From Hydractinia symbiolongicarpus (lineage: Eukaryota > Cnidaria > Hydrozoa > Anthoathecata > Hydractiniidae): a DNA stretch of 64,000 bases. This document shows positions 1-35,960 of the stretch, in pieces (positions within the stretch are counted from its first letter, which is position 1; each line of letters opens with the position of its first letter). Made by a program: the position numbers and the translations under genes. The notes under the pieces were generated by a model, which was not told where the DNA came from, did no database searches, and saw nothing but the letters and a program-made list of their open reading frames with translations. The DNA is taken from positions 35,943,828-36,007,827 of the forward strand of contig NC_079876.1 in assembly GCF_029227915.1 (NCBI RefSeq). The letters run 5' to 3'.

Positions 1-897
1 AGGCTGCGCAATTTGGGGTTCGATATACCGAAAGGTAGTATAACCCCCCGACAGGCCGCTAGGCTAAACAAAATAGAAGAGAGACTACCGTCACCGGATA
101 AAATAGAGAATGCGACGGATATAGAATTAGAAACCATGTCCGGGGAGGTGGTGAACAGTGCCGAGGATCTGGTCTCGCTGGTCGATGATAGTACACTGAA
201 AGCCGAATATCCGGCCGGTGATATTCGCGGATTGGATAGTTCGGTGCAGCGGATCCGCGGGAGTCTCCAACTCTCGACCGCCAAAAAGGTAGATGTTGAG
301 AACAAGATACATAAGGAACAAATGAAGTTGAAGGAGTTGGAAGATCCGTCATACACGGATGAACAGAGGGAGCAGGTGGCCGAGAGGTTGGAAAAGCTAA
401 ACGATGAGTTGGAGGCCCACCAGTCTGCCATCAATATCCTCAAGGGCGAACTTAACACCCAGATAAAAAGCATAAAGGAGACAATCGCCAAGGTACTTAG
501 CAAAGATACTACATTGGGTGAAAAGATACGAACGCTATTCCGTGAACAGGGTATCACCGTTGTCAGTGTACTAACGGCATTCGGGATGGTTATCGGACTT
601 TTGGTTGAAACTTTGACACCCGGAGGTGAGGGGTCATCCACCGGTAATACAAAAAATCATGAAAAAACCGAAGGTGGTGCGAGGGAATGGATAAAGAACA
701 AGCTGAGTGCGCTAGGATCTCTCCTGGGTAGATTAGCCGGTGCCGCAGCCGCATCACTACCGGGTATAATTGGATCCATCGTATCATGGATCCTAAATAG
801 AGCAAAGGAAGCCGTCGGTTGGTTGAGTCAAAACCTGTGGGCTTTGATAGTTGGAATCGGAGGTCTGATATACACCTACATGGTTACAAAGCGTTAG
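1..897 (+). CDS. Membrane/coiled-coil protein of the virus-like element (partial, runs off left edge)
   Basis: The frame is open from the first base, so the true start lies outside the window; 298 residues are visible. From N to C: a polar segment, a charged heptad-like region (about residues 90-165, rich in K, E and L) that should form a coiled coil, a hydrophobic segment (VVSVLTAFGMVIGLLVE), a Gly/Ser linker, an Ala/Leu/Gly-rich stretch (GRLAGAAAASLPGIIGSIV) and a final hydrophobic helix (LWALIVGIGGLIYTYMV) followed by a basic tail. It is transcribed toward the minus-strand block that follows. I know no function for this family. The architecture suggests an internal-membrane or virion-associated protein. 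I recall similar C-terminal sequences as repeated ORFs in cnidarian genomes, which needs a database check. Confidence 0.6.
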   Translation, partial: RLRNLGFDIPKGSITPRQAARLNKIEERLPSPDKIENATDIELETMSGEVVNSAEDLVSLVDDSTLKAEYPAGDIRGLDSSVQRIRGSLQLSTAKKVDVENKIHKEQMKLKELEDPSYTDEQREQVAERLEKLNDELEAHQSAINILKGELNTQIKSIKETIAKVLSKDTTLGEKIRTLFREQGITVVSVLTAFGMVIGLLVETLTPGGEGSSTGNTKNHEKTEGGAREWIKNKLSALGSLLGRLAGAAAASLPGIIGSIVSWILNRAKEAVGWLSQNLWALIVGIGGLIYTYMVTKR

Positions 898-952
898 CGG
901 ATCTGGAATATATGTTACATGACACATGTAACATAATACCCGCGGCATGGTA

Positions 953-1378
953 CTATTTTTCGAAATACCACACGGCACCCCCGACACCGATCATGCTTAG
1001 CGCGATAAATGCCAATTCCCGTTCATGCTGGCCGTTGCTGGGTGTATAAAAGTCGCTCAATACGGGCCTGCGCGGAATATCTGTGAGAGGTGATCCTCCA
1101 AATACTTTTTTATATTCGCGCATCGCGTCATCCAGCTCCGTGAATTTCCCCTCGGCCTTCTTCTCAAGTCTGAGCTGCTTATTGATAAAGTCAACCCTCT
1201 CTTGTCTTTTACGTTGCCATATAACCTGAGCCTTCTGCAGTTGTTCTATGGCTAGATCATGCCGCTTCCGTTCCTTATCTATCCTATCCTTTGATAAACT
1301 TGAAAAGAGGTAGCTTGATCCGGTGAAGGCCAAAGCGTTCGCGAAGGCACCTCCCAACATCATTGCAATTGAAGCCAT
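953..1378 (-). CDS. Small coiled-coil protein with C-terminal membrane anchor (virus-like element)
   Basis: This is a 141-residue ORF. The N-terminus is Ala/Gly-rich and hydrophobic (MASIAMMLGGAFANALAF). A long charged helix follows (about residues 30-95, many K/R/E/Q), then a Pro-rich turn (GSPLTDIPRRPVLSDFY) and a C-terminal hydrophobic segment (ELAFIALSMIGVGGAVWYF). It lies tail-to-tail with the partial plus-strand gene (56 bp gap) and begins the run of minus-strand membrane-type ORFs. Its upstream sequence on the minus strand reads TATATAAACATG, with a TATA-like stretch directly against the start codon. The function is unknown. It could be a minor virion or internal-membrane protein; that is inference from its company with capsid genes. 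Confidence 0.6.
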   Translation of the reverse strand: MASIAMMLGGAFANALAFTGSSYLFSSLSKDRIDKERKRHDLAIEQLQKAQVIWQRKRQERVDFINKQLRLEKKAEGKFTELDDAMREYKKVFGGSPLTDIPRRPVLSDFYTPSNGQHERELAFIALSMIGVGGAVWYFEK

Positions 1379-1408
1379 GTTTATATAATCCGGTATAATA
1401 TAGTGGCG

Positions 1409-1552
1409 TTATTTTAATACGATAGCTTCGGAGTCCATGACATCAGAGTCGTCTATGACCTCGGTATCGATGTATTCCACCTTGGGTAAAATCCTCTCAA
1501 CTTTCTTGCGCTGGCATAAAACCCAGACCAACCATTCCAGTATTCGCAACAT
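1409..1552 (-). CDS. Very small ORF (47 aa) between two virus-like element genes
   Basis: This minus-strand ORF begins MLRILEWLVWVLCQRKK and ends in an acidic tail (VIDDSDVMDSEAIVLK). The hydrophobic N-terminus followed by basic and then acidic segments resembles a tiny single-pass membrane protein. Its ATG overlaps the TAA stop of the upstream 75-residue ORF as TAATG, the sort of stop/start coupling seen in compact viral or bacterial transcripts. No homology is recognised. Support comes from its position, which fills an otherwise empty gap, and from its tight junctions. Confidence 0.4.
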   Translation of the reverse strand: MLRILEWLVWVLCQRKKVERILPKVEYIDTEVIDDSDVMDSEAIVLK

Positions 1553-1779
1553 TATATATTTATAGTTTCGGGTATAATTTTCTGCTTAACTAGATATTCT
1601 CTTGTCATTTCACTTGCGGCGACTATGGCTACAAGCTTTCCGGTATCTTCCAGGTCAAACTTCTGAATTGAGGGTGGTGTCATTTTTAATACCTTTTTCC
1701 CGAGCATTGAATAGCCCACAGCGAAAACGCATACGACCGATGCCTTATAAATATCGTTGACTATACTTTTCTTATCCAT
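1552..1779 (-). CDS. Small membrane-type protein (75 aa), virus-like element
   Basis: This ORF begins MDKKSIVNDIYKASVVCVFAVGYSML, a short polar head and then a hydrophobic helix, followed by a basic loop and a second weakly hydrophobic region (GKLVAIVAASEM). The stop codon shares a base with the start of the next ORF downstream (TAATG). The minus-strand sequence just before the ATG is GTATATAAACATGG, nearly the same as the leader of the 141-residue ORF at 1378. No family is recognised; the role is inferred only from context in the capsid-gene cluster. Confidence 0.5.
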   Translation of the reverse strand: MDKKSIVNDIYKASVVCVFAVGYSMLGKKVLKMTPPSIQKFDLEDTGKLVAIVAASEMTREYLVKQKIIPETINI

Positions 1780-1820
1780 GTTTATATACTTCGAGATTAT
1801 AATATCGCGATATTATCCCT

Positions 1821-2288
1821 TTATTCCATTTCAAGTTTACTTATTCTCATAGTTTTTTTATTACCCGAGTTACTTGGTGGGGTACCCTTCACCTTAATAT
1901 TTTTGTCCTTATTTTTATAGACGAAATAAGCACCAATTAAGACAAGTACTATCACCCCACCACCACCCATTATTGTGTAGTTCACTCCGCCGTGTTTGGG
2001 GCCATCTGTCACGGAATCCTCGATGACAATATCCTTAGGATCCTCCAACTGTGTCTGAGGTGCTGAGTGTGTCTGAGGTGCTGAGTGTGTCTGAGGTGCT
2101 GAGTGTGTCTGAGGTGCCGAGTGTATCTGAGGTGCCGAGTGTGTCTGAGGTGCCGACTGTACCTCCGTCTGTGCGATGAGCAATCTTTTATATTCTTCCC
2201 TATTTTTACGATTGAATTCAGCCAGCCTCTTACCGGCCTCAACCTTTTTAGGGTTCTTCGTTGTCACCTGAACTGGAGTATCCGACAT
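1821..2288 (-). CDS. Repeat-bearing single-pass membrane protein (virus-like element)
   Basis: This is a 155-residue ORF. The N-terminal third is polar and basic (NPKKVEAGKRLAEFNRKN). It is followed by about six copies of a hexapeptide of the type SAPQTH (about residues 45-80), encoded by 18-bp near-identical DNA repeats at about 2055-2160. Next come an acidic segment, a transmembrane helix (GVIVLVLIGAYFVYK, about 110-125) and a basic tail. Its start lies inside the end of the upstream 204-residue ORF (41 bp overlap). The repeat suggests a stalk or linker between the polar head and the membrane anchor. Function unknown. Confidence 0.55.
   Translation of the reverse strand: MSDTPVQVTTKNPKKVEAGKRLAEFNRKNREEYKRLLIAQTEVQSAPQTHSAPQIHSAPQTHSAPQTHSAPQTHSAPQTQLEDPKDIVIEDSVTDGPKHGGVNYTIMGGGGVIVLVLIGAYFVYKNKDKNIKVKGTPPSNSGNKKTMRISKLEME
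2055..2160. repeat. 18-bp coding minisatellite
   Basis: About six direct copies of an 18-bp unit with core GTGTCTGAGGTGC differ by single bases. They sit in frame within the membrane-protein gene at 1821-2288, where each adds six residues (S-A-P-Q-T/I-H). An 18-bp period keeps the frame whatever the copy number. Confidence 0.85.
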
Positions 2289-2862
2289 CTTTAGTATCCG
2301 TATCGATATTGTTTAAATTTTTTCCCGCGATATAATGCCTACCTGTTATTAAACCTACACTGATTGGTGATAGTAGTGATCCGAACTTATAATATAGATC
2401 ACATGTGAACCTTTGGAGTGCCGAGTTTAGGAATGGATCATTCTCCAGGTCATCACTCAGAGCTTTTTGATTTTTTATACCGAGAGCTGTACAGGCGCCC
2501 ATGGAGTACATGTGGATTATTGACTGTCCCAAAGACTTTACCATTTGACCGGATAGTTTAGCCTCGTATATGGTGAACAGTTTATCCACCTCATCATTCT
2601 TGAGCTTCTGGATCTCCGCCTCCGTATACATCTTACCAAGATATAACTTACTATTTCCGGTCAGCACACACTCGAGCAATTTTTGTCTCTTCCCATCATC
2701 CCGGGCATCCTGTTCATCGATAAAAATTATGTTGCCAATTGCGTTTTCAGCCATTTTCAATAGCGATAGGTATTTTTTAATACAAAAAAGGCAAAAACTA
2801 ACCAATACCAGCAATAGCACTACAGCTATCACCAGTAATATGAAATTTATATATTCTATCAT
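2248..2862 (-). CDS. Membrane-anchored protein (204 aa), virus-like element
   Basis: The protein starts with a strong N-terminal hydrophobic segment (INFILLVIAVVLLLVLVSFCLF, about residues 5-26), either a signal anchor or an uncleaved signal. A soluble, mostly helical domain follows with clustered Lys/Glu. The end reads YSSSGDNEEP and overlaps the next gene's start by 41 bp. The region just upstream (2863-2942) holds short direct repeats of the type GTACTACA and no ORF. No homology is recognised. Position between the ATPase and the small membrane ORFs suggests a structural or membrane role; that is inference. Confidence 0.5.
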   Translation of the reverse strand: MIEYINFILLVIAVVLLLVLVSFCLFCIKKYLSLLKMAENAIGNIIFIDEQDARDDGKRQKLLECVLTGNSKLYLGKMYTEAEIQKLKNDEVDKLFTIYEAKLSGQMVKSLGQSIIHMYSMGACTALGIKNQKALSDDLENDPFLNSALQRFTCDLYYKFGSLLSPISVGLITGRHYIAGKNLNNIDTDTKDVGYSSSGDNEEP

Positions 2863-2942
2863 GGTACTACAGTACTACAGTACTATGCTGTAGTTTTCCT
2901 ATAGATTTGTTACAAGACTCTTGTAACAAAAAAATGTCCATT

Positions 2943-3566
2943 CTAGCAAATCACGTGAGTTCTTGGATGTTCCATCCTCATGACTAAATGTGTATATTTG
3001 CCATCTTTCAGCCTTTCCTTAACCTTCTGGATCTCCGACGATTCAATGACATCATTCTCTTCGTGGATGGTTGCGAGATCATGTCTGTCCTTCGGATACC
3101 ACACATATAACATTTTTGCCTGCCTTCGTAAGTTCTTCGGTATCGCGGTGTATGATTGTGTGAGTAGCCACATGGTGTGGTTTCGATGCCGACCGCTGAT
3201 GGCCAGCTCCAGAAGCGGTTGCCTCTTTTTGTCCAGTTTCTCATCTGCGATTATATCGTCGATCAGGAATAATGTTTTGTATCCGGCACAGAAATCCGTC
3301 ATCTTTTGAATCCATTCATACAACATACCTCTGGGCTCAATTAGAATCACATATCTATCCCTCCAGAACCAGTTACTCCCCATATATGTCTTGTTCCATC
3401 TTAATGTTGGACATATAATCACAATGAAATCGAAGTGATCAAAGTATTCACTCTCAAGCAGTGTTACTACGCGTTTGGATTTTCCGCAGCCCGTTGGACC
3501 GACGAATAGTGCCGTGTGAGGATCTTTCATGTAGTCCATCTTAATATAGTACATCCATGATTTCAC
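2943..3566 (-). CDS. FtsK/HerA-type genome-packaging ATPase
   Basis: This 207-residue protein is a P-loop ATPase of the kind that pumps DNA into capsids of double jelly-roll viruses and Polinton-like elements. The Walker A motif is GPTGCGKS (residues 23-30). The Walker B motif is TLFLIDDI (about 98-105). A further conserved segment is SGRHRNHTMWLLTQSY (124-139), a sensor-like strand found in A32-like ATPases. The ORF overlaps the end of the capsid gene by 26 bp if the first Met is used. The Met at residue 10 (base 3539) starts one base after the capsid stop codon and is a plausible alternative start. It is intact, with every key residue present. Neighbouring capsid genes support the packaging role. 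Confidence 0.8.
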   Translation of the reverse strand: MKSWMYYIKMDYMKDPHTALFVGPTGCGKSKRVVTLLESEYFDHFDFIVIICPTLRWNKTYMGSNWFWRDRYVILIEPRGMLYEWIQKMTDFCAGYKTLFLIDDIIADEKLDKKRQPLLELAISGRHRNHTMWLLTQSYTAIPKNLRRQAKMLYVWYPKDRHDLATIHEENDVIESSEIQKVKERLKDGKYTHLVMRMEHPRTHVIC

Positions 3567-4860
3567 CGTTTTGAATATTTAATTGAGCATCCATGATTAG
3601 ATATATGTAGGCGTTTAAGGATCCCGCGGTTTCGGCCGTCTTTTCAACTTGAAGTGTGATCCCCTCGCTCGCATTTTCAATCCGTCGGCCGGTCCCATGC
3701 AGTGAGTTTTCATCTATGGTTCTGAAATCCAGCCATAGAGAATATTTCGTGGTTAGGTAGTCCGCGACCTTCACATCATGTAGTTGCAGATGTTTCTGTA
3801 TTTCACCGGCGTTGCTGTCCTTTTGCTTGCCCTCTGCGAAATACTTGCATATTTCACCATAATGCTCAAACGGTTGCATCCCCTGAGCGAAAAGTTGGTT
3901 AGGCTTACCCTCAACTATGGCGGATACCTTTTTGATCTTAGGATTGTAGAACCTACCGGTATCTCGTTTGTAAGCTTTCTCTTCCTCAAACAGAACCAAT
4001 ATACCCTTCAGGGACTTGCACGGTGTATTGAATGACCAATTCCACGTTGTGTCCGACTTATCCACCCTAATTTGTCTATGTCTCAGAAATCTGTCGTAAA
4101 GTACGGCCATGTTTTGGTATTCATTTGAGATGAATCTGGCGAGTGTCGGTTGTGTCACAATCTCATATTCGAGAGATATGTTGGAGATTTTGTATTTAGC
4201 ATCCGGCGCCGGTGCTGTGGCAGAACCTGAAGGTTTGGTTGGAGTTGATAATACTACCCTATCGTAATTGTTGAATGTTATCTCATAACACAGCCTATTC
4301 CCTAATCCGGCCTGATAAAATGGGATCTTGCTATCCAACATTTCAAAATCTAGTGGTATGGTGAACTTGTTTTTGTATGCATCATAGATTGCTTTGTCCG
4401 CTACCTCCGATGCGTCTTTATCCGCAGCTCCAACTCTCAGTTTCATACAGTTTTCTGTACACCCTTCATCAAAGATGATACCTTGTCTTATTGCATTTCT
4501 TTTTTCAGACTTGGTTAACCATAAATCTCTGTAGCACCCGAAAAGATCAAAGTCATCAATGCTCAGAATCTCGGTACCCTCGAACTTGATAGCTAGCTTT
4601 TTAACAATTGCCCTCCCTATGTTAGAGACCAATGTTCTCTTCGTGTCGACTTTTGACTCGAGTTCAACGTCGAAACTTATTTTCGAAGTACCGGGAACAA
4701 TGACATCATCGTTACCTAAATTAGGGAACCTAATCAGGAGTAACTGGTTCTGATCAATCTCACTTGGGTTGTGAGTGACAATTACTTTTTGATGCGTTCC
4801 TTTCACACCGTGCGCGATTCTAAGTGAACGCTCTGGGTTTAACTTTTTCCCGTATTCCAT
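3541..4860 (-). CDS. Putative double jelly-roll major capsid protein
   Basis: This 439-residue, beta-rich protein with no signal peptide lies directly upstream of the packaging ATPase and downstream of a penton-like gene, the usual order of a capsid-building module. Notable segments are TLVSNIGRAIVKKLAIKFEG (about 76-95), a DDFDLFGCYRDLW block, and IPLDFEMLDSKIPFYQ (about 171-186). The latter resembles the Pro/Leu-rich strand near the end of the first jelly roll in Polinton-type capsid proteins, as I recall that family. Its length is shorter than most Polinton hexons but fits virophage- or Polinton-like-virus-sized proteins. The frame is uninterrupted. Assignment rests on context and overall pattern, not on a decisive motif; a fold prediction would settle it. 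Confidence 0.6.
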   Translation of the reverse strand: MEYGKKLNPERSLRIAHGVKGTHQKVIVTHNPSEIDQNQLLLIRFPNLGNDDVIVPGTSKISFDVELESKVDTKRTLVSNIGRAIVKKLAIKFEGTEILSIDDFDLFGCYRDLWLTKSEKRNAIRQGIIFDEGCTENCMKLRVGAADKDASEVADKAIYDAYKNKFTIPLDFEMLDSKIPFYQAGLGNRLCYEITFNNYDRVVLSTPTKPSGSATAPAPDAKYKISNISLEYEIVTQPTLARFISNEYQNMAVLYDRFLRHRQIRVDKSDTTWNWSFNTPCKSLKGILVLFEEEKAYKRDTGRFYNPKIKKVSAIVEGKPNQLFAQGMQPFEHYGEICKYFAEGKQKDSNAGEIQKHLQLHDVKVADYLTTKYSLWLDFRTIDENSLHGTGRRIENASEGITLQVEKTAETAGSLNAYIYLIMDAQLNIQNGEIMDVLY

Positions 4861-4901
4861 GCTATTCCATATTACTTTTATTTTATTTTACTTTAATTCG
4901 G

Positions 4902-5477
4902 TTAATGTCGGCTATATGTATCCTCCACGTCCCTTATGTGCAGTGTAACTGTTTTATTCATACCTCCCCATAGCACCTTATCCTCCTGACTAGTGACTCT
5001 CAAGGTTAGTGATTGAAGCAAACCCTTCTTTAGTTTCTTATATTGCGGGTTTTTAGGTTCAACATGCGTAAAATCATTACCATGCTCAGATATATGGTGT
5101 GTCATCAGCGTGTTGCTGTATTCACCATCTTCAAGATTTGATGAATTATCCAATTCATCAAGGTGAAAATATAGCTCCGTTATGCCATGTAGATTCATTA
5201 TTTTCGCCAATTTAGGGTTTCTGCTTAGGGGCGACGATTTCACATCACCTCCCACTATCGAATTCAAATCCCTCGCGGTGTACTGCCGACCCTTTGGTAA
5301 GCTAATCTGGGTATTTCCATCCGCCAGGAGTATATCTATTTTATCTAAAGTTATATACACGATATTGTCCGAAAACGCCTCCACGATCGCAACCTCCTTC
5401 GTGCCATGCGAGTTGTCGATCGGACGATGCAGATAGATTTTCTTCTCGCTATTTACGTCTTTTATTGTAATATACAT
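4902..5477 (-). CDS. Putative minor capsid (penton-like) protein
   Basis: This 191-residue protein is dominated by alternating hydrophobic/polar strands (YITLDKIDILLAD, TLRVTSQEDKVLWGG, TVTLHIRDV), compatible with a single jelly roll. It lies directly upstream of the major capsid gene on the same strand, where double jelly-roll viruses keep their penton gene. It shares a 38-bp AT-rich divergent promoter region with the plus-strand gene at 5516. The frame is intact. No catalytic motif is seen, so an enzyme is unlikely. The penton call is inference from context, size and predicted strand content. Confidence 0.45.
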   Translation of the reverse strand: MYITIKDVNSEKKIYLHRPIDNSHGTKEVAIVEAFSDNIVYITLDKIDILLADGNTQISLPKGRQYTARDLNSIVGGDVKSSPLSRNPKLAKIMNLHGITELYFHLDELDNSSNLEDGEYSNTLMTHHISEHGNDFTHVEPKNPQYKKLKKGLLQSLTLRVTSQEDKVLWGGMNKTVTLHIRDVEDTYSRH

Positions 5478-5515
5478 TATTATATTAGAGATTGTGAATA
5501 TATTTAAATCAAAGA

Positions 5516-6718
5516 ATGGATGACATTTTCAAATATAACCCGAACGCGACATATAAGCCAAATGGAGGGACGTATCTTCAAATATTGGGCGCCAGGGATC
5601 TGTACAAACAGGCCATTATTGTGTCCGAAAGCGGATCCTTCCCCGCTTCCTTTCCTACCATTTTTACCAATTATGAAATGAACAACAGCGCGCAACGTAT
5701 GAACGTGTGGAATGAGCAACCTTTTAGACTGTGGCAAACCCAGCTCAATTTCGCCACCTGGTGCGCTTCAAGTGCCTGCGGAGTCAGCTCCGAACACTTG
5801 AAGGATGGTAGATCCATGGTCAGGTCGATATATCGCTTCCATGTGTATTATCACATTAGGCGAATCATTAAGCGCTTGCAGATACCTCTGCCCTTTGAGG
5901 ATAGTTTCAATCAATACGACAATCCTTATTCAAATGAGGAGTTTCTAAAAATATGTGGCGATTATGGGGTTGATCCCAACCAAATGAAATACAGGGGTCA
6001 GTACTTTCTCAGTTCATATCAAAAAAGGCGTAAGGACTATCCAACTCCGGGGTTAAGTTATTTCACAAACGACTCCATGACGCGGTGGATTGTGGAAAAA
6101 TCTGATGGATTTACGAAAACGGGCCTTGTGAAGATCTCGAGCAGTGTCAGAGCCTATGCATATCTTGTTCTTAGTTCTCAAGCCTCGGCACGATCCTCCA
6201 TCCTCGGTAATGATTCAAGTGCTCTGACCGCCCAAAAAGTTTTTATGAATAACCTTGAGGACATTGTTAACCGTAGGGTCGATATTCAGGAAGACATTAA
6301 GCGTTATCAGGATACTCTAAACTACGCATCAAGTAAGGTTGATTATTCCGTCGGTCGGGGTATTTATATGATACCCAGCGACATGAATCTTAGAATTAAG
6401 ACCGGCGTGGTGGGTTACAACAACAAGATTTTGATATCCGGCGAGGATCTTACCATTGGGATTAATCGAAAGGTTAACGAATCACATAAATCCGTGACGC
6501 CGGTCCATACCGATATCCATCCTGATCATCCTGATAAACACACTATCGTGAAACATGTGGATACCGTGGATACCGCGGATAAACACATTACCGGAGCTAC
6601 CGGCGGTGGCGATGTTGGCGCTACCGATGCTACCGGAAGTAGTACACATGAGGATGAGAAGATTGCTCTGATTCTATCTTTTACCGCGGCATTTAGCATA
6701 TGGTATGCTTTCCGATAG
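5516..6718 (+). CDS. Unknown 400-aa protein of the virus-like element with C-terminal hydrophobic tail
   Basis: This is an intact 400-residue ORF divergently transcribed from the penton-like gene. The first 300 residues look globular, with many aromatic residues (RSIYRFHVYYHIRRIIKRL) and a region SVGRGIYMIPSDMNLRIKTG. After residue about 320 it becomes low-complexity (His/Asp/Thr/Val repeats such as PVHTDIHPDHPDKHT), then Gly/Ala/Thr-rich. It ends in a hydrophobic helix (IALILSFTAAFSIWYAF). The globular head, repetitive stalk and hydrophobic tail would suit a virion attachment or vertex protein, but that is inference. I recall close relatives as uncharacterised cnidarian ORFs. Confidence 0.55.
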   Translation: MDDIFKYNPNATYKPNGGTYLQILGARDLYKQAIIVSESGSFPASFPTIFTNYEMNNSAQRMNVWNEQPFRLWQTQLNFATWCASSACGVSSEHLKDGRSMVRSIYRFHVYYHIRRIIKRLQIPLPFEDSFNQYDNPYSNEEFLKICGDYGVDPNQMKYRGQYFLSSYQKRRKDYPTPGLSYFTNDSMTRWIVEKSDGFTKTGLVKISSSVRAYAYLVLSSQASARSSILGNDSSALTAQKVFMNNLEDIVNRRVDIQEDIKRYQDTLNYASSKVDYSVGRGIYMIPSDMNLRIKTGVVGYNNKILISGEDLTIGINRKVNESHKSVTPVHTDIHPDHPDKHTIVKHVDTVDTADKHITGATGGGDVGATDATGSSTHEDEKIALILSFTAAFSIWYAFR

Positions 6719-6769
6719 CAAGAGGACATTATAGACACACATAACACTATAATTTATAAGGCACGACAG

Positions 6770-6845
6770 ATGAGGGTGGGTAGGGACCCATGGGGAGGGG
6801 AGGGGGCCCGGGGGACACGGCGGGGGTTGGGGGGTTGGGGCGGAT
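6770..6845 (+). other. G-rich tract with G-quadruplex potential at the edge of the virus-like element
   Basis: Directly after the last virus-like gene the plus strand becomes strongly G-rich, with runs such as GGGGAGGGGAGGGGGCCC and GGGGGTTGGGGGGTTGGGG. At least four G-runs of three or more lie within 40 bases. The surroundings are AT-rich, so the tract is conspicuous. It could mark a terminus, a replication structure or a regulatory boundary of the element; none of these is proven. Confidence 0.6.
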
Positions 6846-6952
6846 CCGGACATTCGTAGGTGCTAACGGATTTTATAGACTCTTCTATCGTTGATTTGAC
6901 GTGGATGGCCTATAATTTGACGTGGAATGGTAAAGTGCCAACGGGGTCTGTC

Positions 6953-9452
6953 CTAACATCCGCCTTTTCCTATCTCTGTTTTCACTAACAAATCCAAAAT
7001 TGCAAAGTCACTTTCAGAAGCCTTATTGGTTACTGGTACAATTGATGACGTCTCCTTTATTATCTGACTGGGGCTCCAGTACTTTCCTCCAGGCAGTTGA
7101 TCCTTACATTGACGCTCTAAGATGATGAGAATTGCATGGCAAATAATATCAAGGGCTTGCTGTGTTAGAATATCCAATTCATCATCACCTGTATCCTCAA
7201 ATAGCTTGATAAATAATTCATCTTTGTTGTGCACAATAATACCATCCTCTTGGAAAATATGACTGCCAGATAGAAGTGATGAACAATTGTTGCAGAGTGC
7301 AGATAGTTTGACTTTAAGTTGTAACAGGTATGGATTTATTTCGAGGATACTTTCACAAGACTCTATTAATCGCCACAATGGACCAGTCAATAATTTATCA
7401 ATAATGCCAAGTTAAGAAACAACTTATTTGATACGTCTTCATTTACAGCTTTCAGTAAATTATTAGGATCAGGCCATGATGAAAGAAAAGATACGACTGC
7501 ATCACGATGGTAATATAATGCAGCAGCGTTATAAAACAATATGTAAAAACGATTTCCAATAAATGGTACAAAGTAAGATTTCTGATTGCGACCAGCTAAA
7601 AACGAGTTAAAATACGATGCTACTCCACATTCGTCACTTCCACGCACATGAAAAGCTTTACAAGCTGTACGCACTAATCTAGAAGCAGAAGATTCTTTTG
7701 CACTATTGAAGGCAAATACTGTTTCATAGTCATCACAGAGGACCATTCTCTCAAATGAATGCAGAACTTTATCTGCCTCTGAGGCAAAATTTGCCAGAAG
7801 ATGTAATTTGCAAAAGAAATTTCCCATATCGGTCATGTCCGTTTTTTGTGTTTCGCTTAAATAATTCCAGTTTTCTACAACATTTGGTAATAATTTTTCC
7901 CTTAAAGATTTCAGTTGTGAGTTAAATAAAGGATTAATAGGGCCAAGATCCGACATTGTAGATTTGATTGATGTGACAAGCCGGGAAAAATTTGCATCCT
8001 TGTCACATTCTTTCAGAATGTCACACATGTCATCAATTGTGTCAGTAAAATTTTTCATTACTGTTGCCGCATCGCCACCTGCAACTTCTGATAATCCAAA
8101 TGTTAAAGTTTTTCCTTTCGATGTTGTAATCTGAAAATTTTGATAATGTTTATGGTATTTTGATGTACCATCTCCATGTAAACAATTACCAAACGCCTCC
8201 TTGTCATTATCAATCATTGCTTCTGCAACCTGTAATTGTGCTAAAATTAATGCTTCTTGCATTAAATGACTTTTTAAACCTTGTGAAGGCAACCTGTCAA
8301 CCCTTTTTTTTGCAAGTTTTTCAAGTACAACCTTGATCACATCATTTACCTTTCCCATGCTGACATTCAAGGAAAGTATTTCCATAACAACTTCTCTTAT
8401 TTCGTCTGAATAACGTCCACCTTCAAATGTTACAATTTCATTGTCGTTTAATAACGAAACGAGCATTTGCAAATCACGATTTTCTTCAGTAAGTTGCTTC
8501 ATGTTTGTACAGAGTTTGTCATAATCACTTTTTAAACACTTCATATCATTCACTTCTTTGTGGTCAATCAATTTTTTCTGGTTTTCAATTTTTAACAACA
8601 AACTGTGCGTCTTTCTTTTCAGTTTTGCTTTCTCATTCCGCAGATCATCAACTATAGTTTCACTGTTTTCTAATTTATCATTGAGTCTGTTCAAGTTTAC
8701 TTTCATGTCATCCAACTCAACACTTTTATTCTCAGTACCAGATATCAATTAAGCTATTTCTGATTCCATTTTATTAATTTTATCATCTCTGTTTTTAATT
8801 TTCTTTGATAAATTTCTCAATTTATCTGCCCTCGCTTTGCTATTATCTTTAAATTTCAATTCCACATTTCTAAGTTTTTCCTCTACTTCAAGATAATTGT
8901 TCTTTATACGACGATATTCTGCTGTCAACTTATTTTCATCCTTCATTGCTACAAATAACTCGTTACTAAGTTACTTAACCTCTTCGACTTGTGTGTTGTA
9001 TTGAATTTCTAATTCTTGAAAATTTTCGCACTTTCTTTTTAAACTTTTGTTTTCCTCCTTTAATTGTTTCATTTTCTCTTTAAACAAAACTTCATTTCTA
9101 GAACTAGCCGCATCAATAGATCGCTGATGTGGGGTAATTTGCACTGGAACACTAAACTCAGCTTCCAACAAAGTTTCTATAGCAGAATTAGCTTTCCTTT
9201 TTTTCAGACCATTTACTTTCTCTACTAGTCTTTTAACTTTTGTATATAACGCTTTTTCTGGACATGTTATTTCAACACCAAGTAAAACAAATCCATCACT
9301 TACTTCTTTAATGCTTTTTCATTCAATGAAGAAAAAAGATCATAAACTTGTTTATTTTTAATACTCATTTTTAAAGCTGAAAATATATCAAGCGAAACTG
9401 CACTAATAATTTTATTGTCTAACATAAGCTGCAAAACTTTCAACCAATGCAT
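6953..9452 (-). pseudogene. Decayed coiled-coil, transposase-like gene
   Basis: A single minus-strand reading frame can be followed from an ATG at 9452. An N-terminal helical part is followed by a long coiled coil (9171 to about 8450), then a globular domain with LHGDGTSKYHKHYQ, GLSEVAGGDAATVMKN, FFCKLHLLANFA and GNRFYILFYNAAALYYH. The frame is broken by a shift near 9305, in-frame TAA codons at 8971-8973 and 8749-8751, and a shift near 7400, after which LLTGPLWRLIES continues to 6953. The end looks cut short, next to the virus-like element's border. I recall this as a multicopy animal family of unknown function, possibly an RNase H-fold transposase; the Asp in GDGTSK could be catalytic. Dead copy. 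Confidence 0.55.
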
Positions 9453-10626: not shown

Positions 10627-11370
10627 TCTATATAATAATACGCCAGTTCCGTGTGTCTGTCTGTCACTTTTGCAAAGTGGATTATATTCTTTACAATTTT
10701 CTTTAACAAATTCTATAAAACATCGCCTATAAAATTGTTCTGTAATGTACCAAACTTTAACGTTTAAATAGTATTGACGTCAAAGGAAAGTTAATTAAGA
10801 TTAGTGAAGCCATTACAGTGCTCTTAAAACTTTGAGGCCAAATAACTTGGAAACGAGATGGTGACGTCAATGATTTTTCACCGCGTGGGTAACCAGGGAC
10901 CACCTGGGACCAGTTTGGGTAAGTTTCCCAAACCTAGGTCCCCAAATCTGTGTCGGAATAGACGGGCTGATGACGTCATCAAAAAACCTTTAAACTCTAA
11001 TATCTCTGCAACCGTTCGTCAAAAGTACATGATCCTATACATTTTCTTGATCAGCGTTTCAGGATCTATACGAGGAAGGCAACAGGTGTATAAATTTCAA
11101 AAAAAAATGTTTTGTGTTTTCACGGGCCTTTGCTGACGTCAGCACAATTTTTAAATCCTTATATCTGCTTTTGCGTTCCTCGAAAACATATCATCCTACA
11201 CATTATTTTAATCAGCGTTTCAACCTCTACACATTACAATAAAAGAATAAAATAAATCTTTCTAATTTTATTGGGATCTTCACTGCTGCCTTCAGCAAAA
11301 CATCTAAAACAACCTATTTTTCCATTGCCCATCTGCCTAAGTGGATTTCTCCACGGGCCTTATCGACTAG
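10627..11370 (+). mobile_element. Non-autonomous Helitron 1 (first of a four-element tandem array)
   Basis: The element begins TCTATATAATAATACG after an A. It ends with the hairpin GTGGATTTCTCCAC (11341-11354), then about 12 bases, then CTAG followed by T. These are standard Helitron marks: 5' TC, 3' hairpin plus CTRR, insertion between A and T, no inverted repeats and no duplication. The interior is non-coding and matches elements 3, 4 and 5, including a conserved block around GGGACCACCTGGGACC. It carries four TGACGTCA palindromes (10775, 10862, 10971, 11134). It needs Rep/helicase in trans. Confidence 0.8.
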
Positions 11371-13810
11371 TCTCTTATAATAATACGGAGAGTGTGTCTG
11401 TGTGTCTGTAACAGGCAAAGTTGATATCGTCATTTTCCTTTGATGTTGCCGAAAAAAATCTTTGATGTTGCCGAAAAAAATATGTCTTCTTTGTCGTGAA
11501 AAGCCGCGAGTTTTGTGTGGTTTGTTAAATGAAGTTCTAGCACAAAGTAACGGAAATTGTGTTTGCAAAAAAGATGGCTGTCCTTTTTAAGCATTTGTCT
11601 TCTCTTGCCTTCAAAATAAATCTTTACAAAAGCATTTAAAAAGGGGCATGGTATATAAATGAAGTATAGAAAAGTTTCTGTAAGGTTTGTTTATGTTTTT
11701 TAAAGTTTTGATGATATTATTGATGCGAGACATGTTTGTTAGCTAGCATCAACCACACCAACAACAACTAGCTATGTAGCTAGGAATTTATAAATATGTA
11801 GCCATGTTCTTTATACCTAGCTAAGTCTCCAGTTTATATTTAAGTGACCAGCTATTAGCTGCTGTAGCTACCTTATGTTAGCTTCAGTTTTATGTTGCTT
11901 TTTACATGTAAGCTAATCTTAGTGGTCTTTGCTAAGAATGTGACTGTAACTTATTTTAATTGACATTTTAAGCTTAAATTAACAAGCCACAACAACTTTT
12001 AAAAAAGTATTACATAATATTTAAGAAGAGTTTAAGGACTGTTTTTAAGCAAAAAATGTATTTTTCACAATTTGTGTATGCAAATAATGTATTTTTCACA
12101 TTTTGTGTAACTAAACTTATATACATCGCTTACATGCAATATGACGAAACGATTTTTATTTAACATGTAGTAATTCTGGTACCTTAAGTGTAGTGATTTT
12201 TGTTGTTCTAGATGTTCTGACTAAAATGTTTTTGTTTATGGCATTTTTTCTCAATTAAGAAAAGTTTCAACTTTTTTGAGGGAGTACAACACCGAAAAAA
12301 CTTGTGTTTTTTTATATTTTGTATAAATTCTTACCGGGCAGGACTCTGTACAACATACCGAAATGACTGATCCCTCTCTATTTATAAATTTGATGCGTTC
12401 CAAATCACAGTTTTTTGAAATTTTGGGTAATATTTAATGAGTACAAGATGCAAATACTGATTTTTGTTGAATCAGAAGTATTTCCTACAACCATTCTTTT
12501 TTTACACTTTTGTGGAGAAAAAGTGTATGCAATATCATCAGAATAACTGATTTTGTTGCAAACTGTTTTTCTTTTTCACATTTTGGATTGAAATATTGTT
12601 ATAAAGCAAAATAATTAAATTCTGCAAACTTTGATTTTGTCGTTCACCTCTCATCTTTTATATTTTGATTAAACTTTTGAGGAAAACCATAGGAATTATT
12701 TAGAATTTGTATTTTGTGTTGCAAATTTAGTGCAAAAATTTAACTGTTGTGAGGGAGGACCATATGCAATTATATATACTAAAAATAATAATTTGATATT
12801 CTACAAGTTGTATTTTTGTATGCACTTAAATGACTGCTTTTTCTGAGTTGAATTTGATGGGTTTCATATCAATTTTGTGGAAGATTTTATGGCTGAAGAC
12901 AATATAGAACATGCCAATTGAACTGATTTTTGTTCATATTTTGATTTGCTCCTCATAAACCTTTGTGTTCTACATTTATTGTAAACTTTTGTGAGGAAGG
13001 ACCATATATATATACAATGTTTTCAAAATAATGATTTTTGTTGATTTGAAATTTACTCCTTGCTCATTGCTTTTTCGACATTTCAGGTTAAAATGTTTGG
13101 TAAAGTCAGTACGGATCATTAGACAAAAAATTGTTTTGTTAACCGGTTAATTTTTACATTTTGTGCATATCTTTGCGGGAGAGGATGGTATGCAACCGAA
13201 TAAATGATTTTTCAAAGTTTAACTTATTGTTTTTAGGTGTTTTGTGTTTGTTTAAGTTTGGCTTTTTGATATTGTTCAGGTTGTATTGTTGTATAAGCAT
13301 TTAGGGAAAAGACAATGTTTAAAATGCGTAAAGAACTTATTTCATAGATCTGCGCTTACTGTTGCAAGCCTTTCTTTTCGACACTTCAGATTAAAATATT
13401 GAAGGTTTTCAACATAATCACATAATAAGATGTATACATATTTGAGATATGTGTTATTTCTGACATTATTATTATCGTTGTCGTAACTGTCTGGTTTGTG
13501 ACTGTCAATGTTGTAACTTTCTACTAACTAGATTTTACACCTTGCACGCCATTGTTTTTCATATTTTGTCTGAAGTTTTGTTGGGAGGATTTCATGCGAT
13601 TTGACATTTGATATTTTGTGTTAGATTTTAAGAACTTTTTTGTTAAATTATGACTTATATACTTTCTTTTTATGCATTTTTAGATTATTTTTTTTAGTAA
13701 AAGGCATGTTCAATATACTGAAATATTTGCTGATGTCATCAAAATTCAAATGACAGAACTGAAATTGTTTTTCTGCCTAAGTGGATTTTTTCACGGGCCT
13801 AATCGACTAG
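11371..13810 (+). mobile_element. Long non-autonomous Helitron 2
   Basis: It starts TCTCTTATAATAATACGG directly at the CTAG of element 1 and ends with a hairpin-like GTGGATTTTTTCAC (13781) and CTAG at 13807-13810. At about 2.4 kb it is longer than its neighbours. From about 12040 to 13720 it is filled with a degenerate repeat of roughly 100-150 bp whose recurring core resembles ATTTTGTG, then a G-rich GAGG(A)GGACC-like motif, then a TGCAATAT-like motif and TGATTTTTGTTGA. No coding region is visible. Related long elements lie at 18627-21124 and, reversed, at 30373-32780. Confidence 0.75.
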
Positions 13811-14531
13811 TCTATATAATAATACGCCAGTTCTGTCTGTGACTTTTGCAAAGTGGATAAAATTTCTTTGATAAAGTCTATAAAACATCGCCTATAAATT
13901 TGTTCTGTAAATTAGCAAACTTTGACGTTAGAGCAATATTGACGTCAAAGGAAAGTATATTAAGATTAGTGAAGCCATTGCATTGCACTTTTAAATTTAA
14001 GGCTAAATAACTTGGAAACGGTTGGAAATAACTGACGTCATCTCCTGCGTGGGTAACTAGGGACGACCTGGGACCAATTTGAGTAATTTTCCAAACCTGG
14101 GTCCCCAAATACGTTTCGGAATGAACGGGTTTATGACGTCATCAAAAAACCTTTAAACCACAATATTTCCATAACCGTTGGTCAAAAGTACAGGATCCTA
14201 TACATTTCTTGATCAGCGTTTCAAGAGCTATAACATGAAGGCAACGGGTATACAAATTTCAAAAAAATAATTTTCTGTACTTTTATTAGGGACTTTGCTG
14301 ATGTCAGCAAAATTTTTAAACTCGTAAATCTCATTAACCATTCATCAAAAGCACGTGATTACATACATTTTCTTGATCAGTGCTTTAAGGTCTACACAAT
14401 AAAGGCAGCGTAAAAACTAGGTTCTAATTTTTTTTTGCAGATGGGTTGCTGACGTCATCAAAATTCATATGACACTCATTTTTCATTTTTATCCTGCTTC
14501 AGTGGATTTTTCCACGGGTTTTATCGACTAG
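13811..14531 (+). mobile_element. Non-autonomous Helitron 3
   Basis: It starts TCTATATAATAATACGCC at the CTAG of element 2. It ends with hairpin GTGGATTTTTCCAC (14502-14515) and CTAG (14528-14531). The interior matches elements 1, 4 and 5 and holds four TGACGTCA palindromes (13940, 14033, 14134, 14450). No coding sequence. Confidence 0.8.
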
Positions 14532-15274
14532 TCTATGTAATAATACGCCGGTTCCGTGTCTCTGTGACAGGCAAAGTGCAAGTGCTCATTTTCCTTTGAT
14601 GTTACCGAAATATGCATGTTTAATATGTTAAATTTTATGACGTTACGGCGCGACGTCAATAGCACTACTTTAACGTCAATGTCCTATATTAAATTAATGA
14701 AGCCATTACAATGCACTTAAAACTTTGAGGCCAAATAACTTGGAAACGAGGTGGTGACGTCAATGTTTTTTCACCGCGTGGGTAACTAGGGACCACCTAG
14801 GACCAATTTGGGTAATTTTCCCAAACCTGGGTCCATGGAATCCGTTTCGGAATGGACGGGTTGATGACGTCATCAAAAAACCTTCAAACCCCAATATCTC
14901 TGCAACCGTTTACCCAAAGTACATGATCCTATACATTTTCTTAATCAGTGTTTCAAGATCTATACGATGAAGGCAACAGGTACACAAATTTCTCAAAAAA
15001 TATTTTGGGTTTTGACGGGTCATTGCTGATGTTGACGGGTCATTGCTGACTTTTAATCCCTGACATCTCCTTAGGCGTTCGTCGAGAACATATGATCCTG
15101 TACATTAATTATTGTGACCAGCGTTTCAACCTCTGCACATTACAGACAAAGAATAAACAGATTTCGCGAATTTTCTTATCTGCGCTACACTGCTGCCGTC
15201 AGCAAAACATCTAAAGCAACTTTTTTTATTGATTTTTTGCCTAAGTGGATTTCTCCACGGGCTTTATCGACTAA
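14532..15274 (+). mobile_element. Non-autonomous Helitron 4 (last of the tandem array)
   Basis: It starts TCTATGTAATAATACGCC at the CTAG of element 3. It ends with hairpin GTGGATTTCTCCAC (15245-15258) and CTAA followed by T, still within the CTRR rule. The interior matches elements 1, 3 and 5. Two full TGACGTCA sites (14755, 14865) and two decayed ones remain. Confidence 0.8.
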
Positions 15275-15660
15275 TTGTTATTAATAATAAAATAACAGTA
15301 AAAATAATAATTAATAATGCTTTGCTCTACCATTCACCTATGATTCACCTGGATTTGAACCAGCATCAAGCATGTTAATAAATACATCCTTCAAAAAGCA
15401 AAAATTTTCAGAAAGGTAATTGTTGCAGTTCTACAAGAATTGTACTTTGATATACAATATCTGCAGCATACCGTAAAAAATAACAAATTTTCGCACTAAA
15501 ATGAGCGAAAAATTTGTAAATCACATTTACAAAACATTTTCTTAAAAGAACAAATCTATATACCACTCACCCTGTTTTATTCGTACACTGTATCTTGATT
15601 TTTTATAAAAAAGCAACAACTCTGAATAAAAGTTAGTTTCGGACGGAAGATGTTGCCTAA
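15275..15660. other. Non-coding spacer
   Basis: AT-rich spacer between the Helitron array and a Harbinger fragment. One tRNA T-arm-like sequence (GGTTCAAATCC on the minus strand near 15355) is present, without a foldable tRNA around it. Confidence 0.4.
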
Positions 15661-22087: not shown

Positions 22088-23815
22088 AAAAATTTTTATA
22101 CAGGATATAGATTTTCAATATATATAATATTGCTATTAACAAACGTCCTGTCTTTAAAAATAAAAATATAGTAAGGTAAAAACATATATTATATAAGCAA
22201 TAAAAATAAAACTAGTTAAAAAGTCTTAAAATTAGCTAAAACTGCCAGATTGTGTGTGAGATGAATACAAATAAAATATCACAACTGAAGTAAAGTCTCC
22301 GCAGGAAAAATAAGCACGTTAAATCAAACAGAACACTCTGAACTATCAAATGGAGTATGTGACTATCGGATATAAATCAAATCAAAGGTTAAAAATCTTC
22401 AAAACATTTTTCCTAAACAAATTAAAATTTTCAATTTTACGAATATTTAATGGTAGCTCGTTGTATAGTGTAACACCCATTGAAAAGAAACCAGATTTTG
22501 CATATTTGAGTTTTGTGAAAGGAATTTGTAATTTATAACGATCATTTCTTGTCCCCCTACCATGGGACTGTACTTTGAAGTAATCAATAAAGTTTGCACA
22601 CGTTTTCCTTTCTAAACATTTTCACACAAGTAGAATTGATTGTTTCTTCACTACGTTTTCAACAAGTGGTTGGCTTGTTCCAGTGACGGTTTCAGCTAGA
22701 TTATCAATGGATTTAAGCTTATTTCTTTGCGTTTGGCTTAAATTTAAGTTTACCGTACAGTTGTATATTATGCAAGGAAGAATCATTCCATTGTAAATCT
22801 TTCTTTTTGACGAATCGTCGAGATAACTTTGAAGAGAAGACAACATACGTAATTTGGATACTGGACGCTTGTAGATTTTATCAAAATTAGTAGAGAGTGA
22901 AAATGAACTATCCAACGTAGTTCTCAAGTATTTGTATGTTTCGGTAGCCTGTTTCTCAGTGTCATCAAACAACAAGGACATATTTTTACCACAGAATGAT
23001 AGTTTTTTCGAGGTACCAAAAAGCATAGTTTAGTTTTTGCCTTTATTCAAGTTGATAACTAGCTAGTTGATTTGGAAATATGTTGAAATCAACTTCAAGT
23101 CCTCATTTAGCTGGTACTCGATTGATTCCTTGTTCTTTCCCTCGACATAAACCACAGTGTCATCAGCAAAGTTCAAAGAATGCGTGTTTTTTAAGCATTA
23201 CTCAAAGTCATTGAAATAAATCAAGAAAAGAAGTGGTCCCAAGATCGAGCCTTGGGGCACTCCACAGGTGATCTTCATACGTTCTGAATTACACTTCTCA
23301 ACAATACAGTATTGCTCCCTATTGAAAAGGTAGTCAGCGAACCAATTTCGAGCAGAACCTCTGATTCCAACACTTTTCAACTTTTCCAAGAGAACTGAAT
23401 GGTTTAAAGTGTCAAAAGCCTTTGATAAGTCAATATAAAGTGCACCTACCAAGTTGCCTTTGTCGACAGCTTCGCGAATATTGTGTGTCAGCAGGATAGT
23501 AGCTATCTCAGTTGAACGTCTTTTCCGATAACCGAACTGATTTTCTGATAAGATGTTGTTATTCTCGAGGTAATCAGATAGTTGTTTATGGACAGCTTTC
23601 TCGAGGACTTTTGATAAGGAAGAAAGTACGGAAATCGGTCGATAATTGTTGTTGTTGTCAGTTGCACCTCCTTTGTGAATCGGGGTAATTTTCGCAATTT
23701 TCCACTCAGTTGGAACCAGTCCAGTGGAAATCGACATGTTGATGAGGTGAGTTAATGGACCCGATACGGGTTGGGCAGCATCTTTCAGGATTCCTGGAGG
23801 TAGGTTGAAGTAGTT
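22053..23815 (-). mobile_element. 5'-truncated LINE with (TAA)n tail
   Basis: On the minus strand the coding part runs from about 23815. Reverse transcriptase motifs are ITPIHKGGATDNNNNYRPIS, ALYIDLSKAFDTLNHSVLL, GVPQGSILGPLLFLIYFND and, after an in-frame TAA (23198-23200), LNFADDTVVYVE with the catalytic FADD box. The C-terminal part follows at 23026-22622, and a last segment (SMGVTLYNELPLNIR, near 22470) is typical of CR1/L2/Jockey-group LINEs. The element ends in a trinucleotide tail (22053-22088). It lacks the endonuclease and first ORF. Stops and shifts show it is dead. Confidence 0.75.
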
Positions 23816-24110: not shown

Positions 24111-24823
24111 TCTCTTATAATAATACGGTGACTGTGTCTGTCCTTAACACAGAAAGTAGATGTTTTATTTTCCTTTGATATTGTTGAAAAATGCATGCCT
24201 AATATGTTAAGTCTTCTGACGTTACGGCGCGACACTACTTTAACGTCAATATCCTATATTAAATTAATGAAGCCATTACAGTGCACCCAAAACTTTGAGG
24301 CTAAAAACTTGGAAACGAGGTGGTGACGTCAATGATTTTTCACCGCGTGTGTAACTAGGGACCACCTAGGACCAATTTGGGTAAGTTTTCCAAACCTGGG
24401 TTACCAAATCAGTTTCGGAATGGACGGGTTGATGACGTCATCACAAAATCTTAATATCTCCGCAACCGTTTGTAAAAAGTACATAATCCTATACATTTTC
24501 CTGATCAGCGATTCAAGATCTATACGATGAAGGCAACAGGTATACAAATTTATATAAAAAAAATTCGGTTTAGACGGAGCTATTGATGACGTCAGCAAAA
24601 ATTTTAAACCCTTATATCTCATTAACCGTTAGGACATGATCATATACATTTTCTTGATCAGCAGTTTAAGCTCTAAACAATAGAGGCAACGTGAAAACAA
24701 ATTTCTTAGAAAAAATATTTCGTCTTTTGACAGATTCTTGCTGACGTCATGAAAATTTAAATAGCGGTTCTTTTTTATTGTTATCCTGTCTAAGTGGATT
24801 TTTCCACGGGCTTTATCGACTAG
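24111..24823 (+). mobile_element. Non-autonomous Helitron 5
   Basis: It starts TCTCTTATAATAATACGG after A and ends with hairpin GTGGATTTTTCCAC (24794-24807) and CTAG followed by T. The interior matches Helitrons 1, 3 and 4. It holds four TGACGTCA palindromes (24324, 24433, 24587, 24742). It stands alone, not in the tandem array. Confidence 0.8.
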
Positions 24824-24954
24824 TAGTAAAATAAACAAGTTTCAGTTTTTCATCCAAATTATTGTTAAATATTTTTGTCCTTAAAATCATAACCGTTTCA
24901 TATTTTAGGTTCTATATAATAAACCTTACCGTTTATGTGTTTTTTACAAGAAGA

Positions 24955-35741: not shown

Positions 35742-35960
<219 letters not shown>

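What the first reader, a model, noticed from the sequence alone, without database searches (positions are those of the whole stretch)
1..6950. Intact virus-like capsid element in a genome otherwise full of dead elements
A packaging ATPase with Walker A and B, a probable double jelly-roll capsid, a penton-like protein and several membrane proteins stand together without a single stop or frameshift. Other coding elements in the window are broken. The visible part shows no DNA polymerase, integrase or protease, which Polintons normally have. This may be a little-described animal-associated Polinton-like or adintovirus-like lineage, recently inserted or still active.
Basis: partly seen in the sequence, partly recalled or inferred. 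Interest (0 to 1): 0.88.

Follow-up and report, generated by a model that had tools for sequence, protein, structure and literature searches.

The report
Abundant Polinton virus with 5-base duplications
The window cuts through one of many young copies of a 16-kilobase Polinton (Maverick), an inserted DNA virus with its own polymerase, integrase and capsid genes; it is a known kind of element, but its 5-base target duplications, its many copies with open capsid genes and its patchwork capsid-corner gene are worth study.

Summary
The capsid genes are real, and the window cuts the element in two. The whole copy is C2:35934399-35950804 of the host genome (16,406 bp), with 260-bp terminal inverted repeats (99.2% identical) and a 5-bp target duplication. 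No separate maturation protease was recognised. Inside the window lie a double jelly-roll capsid protein (weak model), a penton, a Pox_A32-type packaging ATPase and small proteins. So this is a Polinton/Maverick-type integrated virus, best matching the published "meldvirus" description, not a polymerase-less new lineage.

The copy is not wholly intact: its integrase frame ends at 205 residues, against 326-328 in most other copies. The family is large: 171 repeat ends. The capsid gene is open in 31 of 41 repeat-bounded copies examined. Capsid and ATPase genes show dN/dS of about 0.05-0.10; the penton is faster-evolving and looks mosaic. Target duplications are 5 bp in 11 of 11 copies examined (9 independent sites), whereas 6 bp is the published Polinton value. 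The host was not identified, and no particles were tested.

The parts
1..6977 (.). Right-hand 6,977 bp of the 16,406-bp element; the rest (9,429 bp, locus L009:72-9500) lies left of the window
   Evidence: inverted repeats and target duplication
1..897 (+). C-terminal 298 residues of a coiled-coil-like protein with two hydrophobic segments; begins at L009:9147
   Evidence: function unassigned
953..1378 (-). 141-aa protein, function unassigned
1552..1779 (-). 75-aa protein, function unassigned
1821..2288 (-). 155-aa protein with one hydrophobic segment and a short peptide repeat
2248..2862 (-). 204-aa protein with N-terminal hydrophobic segment
2943..3566 (-). Packaging ATPase (Pox_A32 type)
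   Evidence: PF04665 7.5e-7 above cut-off; phrog_2666 terminase 2.9e-13; 3598 homologues at E<=0.001
3541..4860 (-). Major capsid protein, probable double jelly roll
   Evidence: structure matches of a weak model; PF16903 only sub-threshold; 1813 homologues
4902..5477 (-). Penton, single jelly roll; variable and apparently mosaic
   Evidence: variation
5516..6718 (+). 400-aa protein, function unassigned, under purifying selection (median dN/dS 0.154)
6718..6977 (.). Right terminal inverted repeat, 260 bp, 2 mismatches to the left one (L009:72-331)
6978..6982 (.). 5-bp target duplication GTTTT (other copy at L009:67-71)

Best explanation
The finding is the right-hand 7 kb of a 16.4-kb Polinton/Maverick-type integrated dsDNA virus, closest to the published meldvirus description (Polinton-type polymerase and integrase with a giant-virus-like virion module). 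Shown here: gene content, ends, target duplications, copy census, purifying selection on virion genes. Inferred from the families: PolB copies the linear genome from its ends by protein priming; capsid protein and penton form an icosahedral shell; the ATPase fills it; the rve integrase inserts the DNA with a 5-bp staggered cut; new copies arise mostly by reinfection of germ cells. Because this copy's own integrase frame ends early, it either broke after insertion or was inserted with integrase supplied in trans.
For: PolB: DNA_pol_B_2 1.1e-10 and Endonuclease VII 2.8e-5 on a middle piece, both above cut-off, polymerase and exonuclease motifs. Integrase: rve 1.8e-10 above cut-off. ATPase. Capsid protein and penton folds. 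260-bp inverted repeats. 5-bp target duplication in 11 of 11 copies, 2 of 90 in mismatched controls. 171 repeat ends against 0 for the reversed pattern; 43 convergent pairs among the 100 ends listed. dN/dS: MCP 0.054 over 30 best copies; medians MCP 0.087, ATPase 0.100 in copies picked by their ends.
Against: Capsid model weak: pLDDT 49, rmsd 11.7 A for the best match, low TM-scores. Pfam did not find the polymerase on the whole 1430-aa protein nor on the palm piece alone. No maturation protease recognised. Target duplication 5 bp, not the published 6 bp. No exogenous relative in six IMG/VR scans. Particles, priming and current mobility untested. 8 of 10 copies fetched for lack of a listed capsid hit have a broken capsid frame.
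Confidence: 0.92

Rival explanations
1. It now spreads only as an intragenomic transposon: copies multiply inside one germline without particles, and capsid genes are passengers.
For: High copy number of near-identical copies in one genome; no exogenous relative in IMG/VR.
Against: Capsid and ATPase genes keep dN/dS of about 0.05-0.10, as low as or lower than the other genes measured; 31 of 41 examined repeat-bounded copies keep the capsid frame open. Part of the constraint could predate insertion, and the sample is biased to similar copies.
Confidence: 0.2
2. A polymerase- and integrase-less Polinton-like virus.
For: True of the visible 7 kb only.
Against: PolB and integrase lie between the same pair of inverted repeats, and the fetched ends of 10 other copies carry PolB too.
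Confidence: 0.01
3. A member of Adintoviridae in the strict sense.
For: OTU-like Cys/His pattern in PolB (pattern recalled), rve integrase, penton matching Drosophila-associated adintovirus 2 at 6.6e-5.
Against: Capsid model matches a MELD virus (4.4e-7) and giant-virus capsids better than an adintovirus capsid (1.7e-2); the hexon BLASTp criterion was not tested.
Confidence: 0.2

Closest known systems
Polintons / Mavericks (PMC4028283, PMC8097293, passages seen)
   Same: PolB, rve integrase, packaging ATPase, double jelly-roll capsid protein, penton, inverted repeats, 15-20 kb
   Different: Target duplication 5 bp instead of 6; no recognised protease (PMC4028283 found one in 74% of Polintons); gene order differs from the vertebrate one
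Meldviruses (PMC11071296, passages and section 16 seen)
   Same: Adintovirus-like PolB and integrase joined to virion proteins resembling those of poxviruses and megaviruses; best viral model match is a MELD virus protein
   Different: No direct sequence comparison with the published meldvirus genomes was possible; many integrated copies here
Adintoviruses (PMC11071296, section 16 seen)
   Same: rve integrase, PolB with OTU-like pattern, penton
   Different: Capsid match weaker than to meldvirus and giant-virus capsids; hexon criterion untested
Polinton-like viruses without PolB and integrase (PMC11071308, passages seen)
   Same: capsid, penton and ATPase module
   Different: this element has both PolB and rve integrase

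Membership tests
Polinton/Maverick | family-B DNA polymerase of the organellar/viral type | tested here: met
   DNA_pol_B_2 1.1e-10 on L009:1960-3100; whole protein and palm piece gave no hit; motifs seen
Polinton/Maverick | protein priming by a terminal-protein domain | not tested
   no structure of the polymerase was predicted
Polinton/Maverick | rve integrase | tested here: met
   PF00665 1.8e-10 above cut-off; interrupted in this copy
Polinton/Maverick | FtsK/A32-type packaging ATPase | tested here: met
[quoted passage not shown]
   model of low confidence
Polinton/Maverick | single jelly-roll penton next to the capsid gene | tested here: met
Polinton/Maverick | Ulp1/adenain-type protease (present in 74% of Polintons, PMC4028283) | tested here: inconclusive
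   no Pfam match in the ORFs tested; no fold search of them
Polinton/Maverick | long terminal inverted repeats | tested here: met
   260 bp
Polinton/Maverick | usual, not defining: 6-bp target duplication | tested here: not met
   5 bp in 11 of 11 copies
Meldvirus (PMC11071296) | PolB and integrase joined to pox/megavirus-like virion proteins | tested here: inconclusive
   Pfam and structure point that way, but the capsid model is weak and published genomes were not compared
Adintoviridae | hexon recognisable by BLASTp to adintovirus hexons | not tested
   no reference sequences at hand
Adintoviridae | PolB with N-terminal OTU-like domain | tested here: inconclusive
   Cys/His pattern at residues 356-452, recalled pattern, no profile match

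The most novel reading that the evidence does not exclude
A currently or very recently infectious Polinton virus of this host, whose integrase has shifted to a 5-bp stagger and whose penton exchanges its central segment between lineages while the shell and motor genes stay almost fixed: the pattern expected if the capsid vertex carries the contact with host cells.
Probability: 0.3. Interest if true: 0.75.

Novelty: new variant of a known kind. Interest (0 to 1): 0.5.

Why it matters
Two 2021 papers state that Polinton/Maverick particles or an extracellular form had not been seen (abstract starts of PMC8097293 and PMC7805220 in the listing). A host with many young, repeat-bounded copies whose capsid genes are under strong purifying selection is a good place to look. 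The penton pattern offers a test of whether selection acts on particles meeting cells. The 5-bp duplication, if it holds across the family, widens the known range of Polinton integrases.

Tried and rejected
Rejected: polymerase-less element; cellular ATPase (the best Pfam match above its cut-off is Pox_A32); chance ORFs (1813, 3598 and 491 homologues at E<=0.001). I considered that the ORFs at 6953-8946 are the element's own transposase: but for the last codons they lie outside the inverted repeat and target duplication and have no Pfam family above cut-off, so they are flanking DNA, perhaps another mobile element (guess).

Led nowhere: six IMG/VR scans and one GTDB contig scan gave 0 confirmed relatives; each rests on a few peptide patterns. 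PDB sequence searches gave no viral match. The empty-site search, the polymerase census and a PF03175 search did not complete. The first dN/dS script failed on orientation and was redone.

Biases: the 96 capsid hits and the 30 copies are the best by protein similarity, which favours open frames and low dN/dS; the 10 copies were taken because no capsid hit was listed for them, which leans the other way; three of those 10 share one break. 2 of 43 repeat pairs were not examined for the capsid gene, and 71 of 171 repeat ends were not listed. Only the capsid gene, not whole elements, was scored as open. No formal recombination test was run.

Full report
What was claimed.

The ends and the missing half. 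The window is C2:35943828-36007827 of a 481-Mb genome in 76 contigs. I fetched 9.5 kb to the left (L009). The 260 bases ending at window 6977 recur inverted at L009:72-331 with 2 mismatches, and GTTTT stands outside both ends. The copy is 16,406 bp. G+C is 0.41-0.45 over the visible part and 0.37-0.48 to its left, against 0.29-0.40 over the 2-kb steps from 8001 on. To the left lie a 1430-aa frame and an integrase core with rve at 1.8e-10. Pfam missed the polymerase on the whole protein and on its palm piece, but a middle piece gives DNA_pol_B_2 at 1.1e-10 and Endonuclease VII at 2.8e-5, both above cut-off. Polymerase and exonuclease motifs and an OTU-like Cys/His pattern are readable (motif names recalled). 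Homing endonucleases in Polinton polymerases are known (PMC11071308, passages). No Ulp1/adenain protease was matched in the ORFs tested.

How intact. The visible frames are open. The integrase frame of this copy ends at 205 residues, as does that of a copy with the same flanks 3.6 Mb away. In the 150 copies scored of 1856 candidates, a hand count of the listing gives 12 with a frame other than 326 or 328 (these two included) and 12 with a stop inside the match. I describe this and go no further.

Family size and age. The outer 30 bases of the repeat occur 171 times (86 forward, 85 reverse, up to 3 mismatches; reversed control 0). The 100 ends listed form 43 convergent pairs of 12.7-20.2 kb, median 16.2 kb, with 14 ends unpaired. 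The ATPase search scored 40 of 261 candidates, 96-100% identical over their whole length. The capsid search scored 96 of 2220 candidates, 92 without a stop. Of the 43 pairs, 31 hold one of those 96, two of these with a stop. Of the other 12 pairs I fetched the ends of 10: all 10 hold capsid, penton, ATPase and polymerase sequence; the capsid frame is open in 2 and broken in 8. So 31 of 41 examined keep it open; some of the 41 are duplicates of one insertion. Inverted repeats within the 10 fetched copies are 93.0-99.6% identical.

Integration. Ten pairs and the window copy all have exactly 5-bp duplications; 2 of 90 mismatched pairs agree over 5 bp. Two C12 pairs share flanks, and C2:32372600 has the window copy's flanks inverted, so these are 9 independent sites. 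Published value: 6 bp (PMC10045372 passages; PMC8097293 passages). A search for 5-bp duplications together with Polinton or Maverick listed papers on Ginger and IS481EU elements, none shown to report it for Polintons (15 of 150 papers listed, open-access library only).

Selection and the penton. Mean capsid dN/dS is 0.054 over 435 pairs of the 30 best copies. Against the window copy, the 10 copies fetched by their ends give medians of 0.087 for the capsid, 0.100 for the ATPase (9 copies), 0.154 for the 400-aa protein and 0.314 for the penton. Penton identity to the window copy is 53-75% where capsid identity is 90-99%; the exception is the duplicate copy. At 88% single linkage 39 penton sequences, the window's own counted twice, fall into five groups. 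Against L037 and L060 the DNA is 97-100% identical upstream and in the first part of the gene, drops to 47-78% over three 60-base bins (5181-5360), returns to 97%, and dips again to 75% at 4941-5000. Against the largest group (L033) identity is lower throughout and the edges are not sharp. Synonymous differences are also high in the variable stretch, so exchange of a divergent segment explains it better than point selection alone; whole-gene dN/dS between groups is 0.30-0.64, below 1.

Mechanism. Most likely the integrated copy is expressed, PolB replicates a linear genome from its ends, capsid proteins and ATPase make and fill particles, and integrase inserts new copies. Anatomy, copy number and selection are shown; the rest is inferred. 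Purifying selection on virion genes was taken as evidence for particles in fish Mavericks (PMC8097293, passages).

Comparison. Krupovic et al. (PMC4028283, passages) described such capsid and penton genes in Polintons; the Hydra capsid protein retrieved only PBCV-1 VP54. PMC11071296 (passages; section 16 read) describes genomes that join adintovirus-like PolB and integrase to virion proteins resembling those of poxviruses and megaviruses and names them meldviruses; this element fits best there. What I did not meet in the papers seen: 5-bp duplications in a Polinton, and the penton pattern. Vertebrate Mavericks reach at most 38 intact copies in one genome by a stricter whole-element test (PMC8097293), so my capsid-only count is not directly comparable.

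Verdict. A known kind of element in a variant form, of moderate interest.

Noticed in passing
G000:C2:32372600-32389010 against the window copy (C2:35934399-35950804): Same host flanks in inverted orientation, ATPase identical, capsid gene 0.3% different: an inverted duplication of the locus, or an assembly fault.
   Followed up: partly
C12:26742360, C12:26919378 and C12:27301780 copies: The first two share host flanks and all three share the same capsid frame break: duplicated loci rather than separate insertions.
   Followed up: partly
L009:5277-5546 and L009:7651-7935: Two paralogous Rho_N/SAP-like small proteins (3.1e-7 and 6.1e-7) inside the element; the polymerase N-terminus has a similar sub-threshold match.
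   Followed up: partly
L009:305-4597, polymerase residues about 124-180 and 930-990: The polymerase carries an internal duplication of about 55 residues; the copy in L074 lacks the second unit.
   Followed up: no
6953-8946: Fragmentary ORFs without a Pfam family above cut-off, interrupted by the insertion.
   Followed up: partly
23198-23737: Reverse-transcriptase fragment, RVT_1 6.7e-27.
   Followed up: no
10627-11454, 13811-15289, 24258-24824: Copies of an interspersed repeat, 76-82% identical.
   Followed up: no
35744-35960: Near-perfect palindrome with 108-nt arms, 98% complementary, no spacer; the many offsets by two suggest a simple repeat.
   Followed up: no
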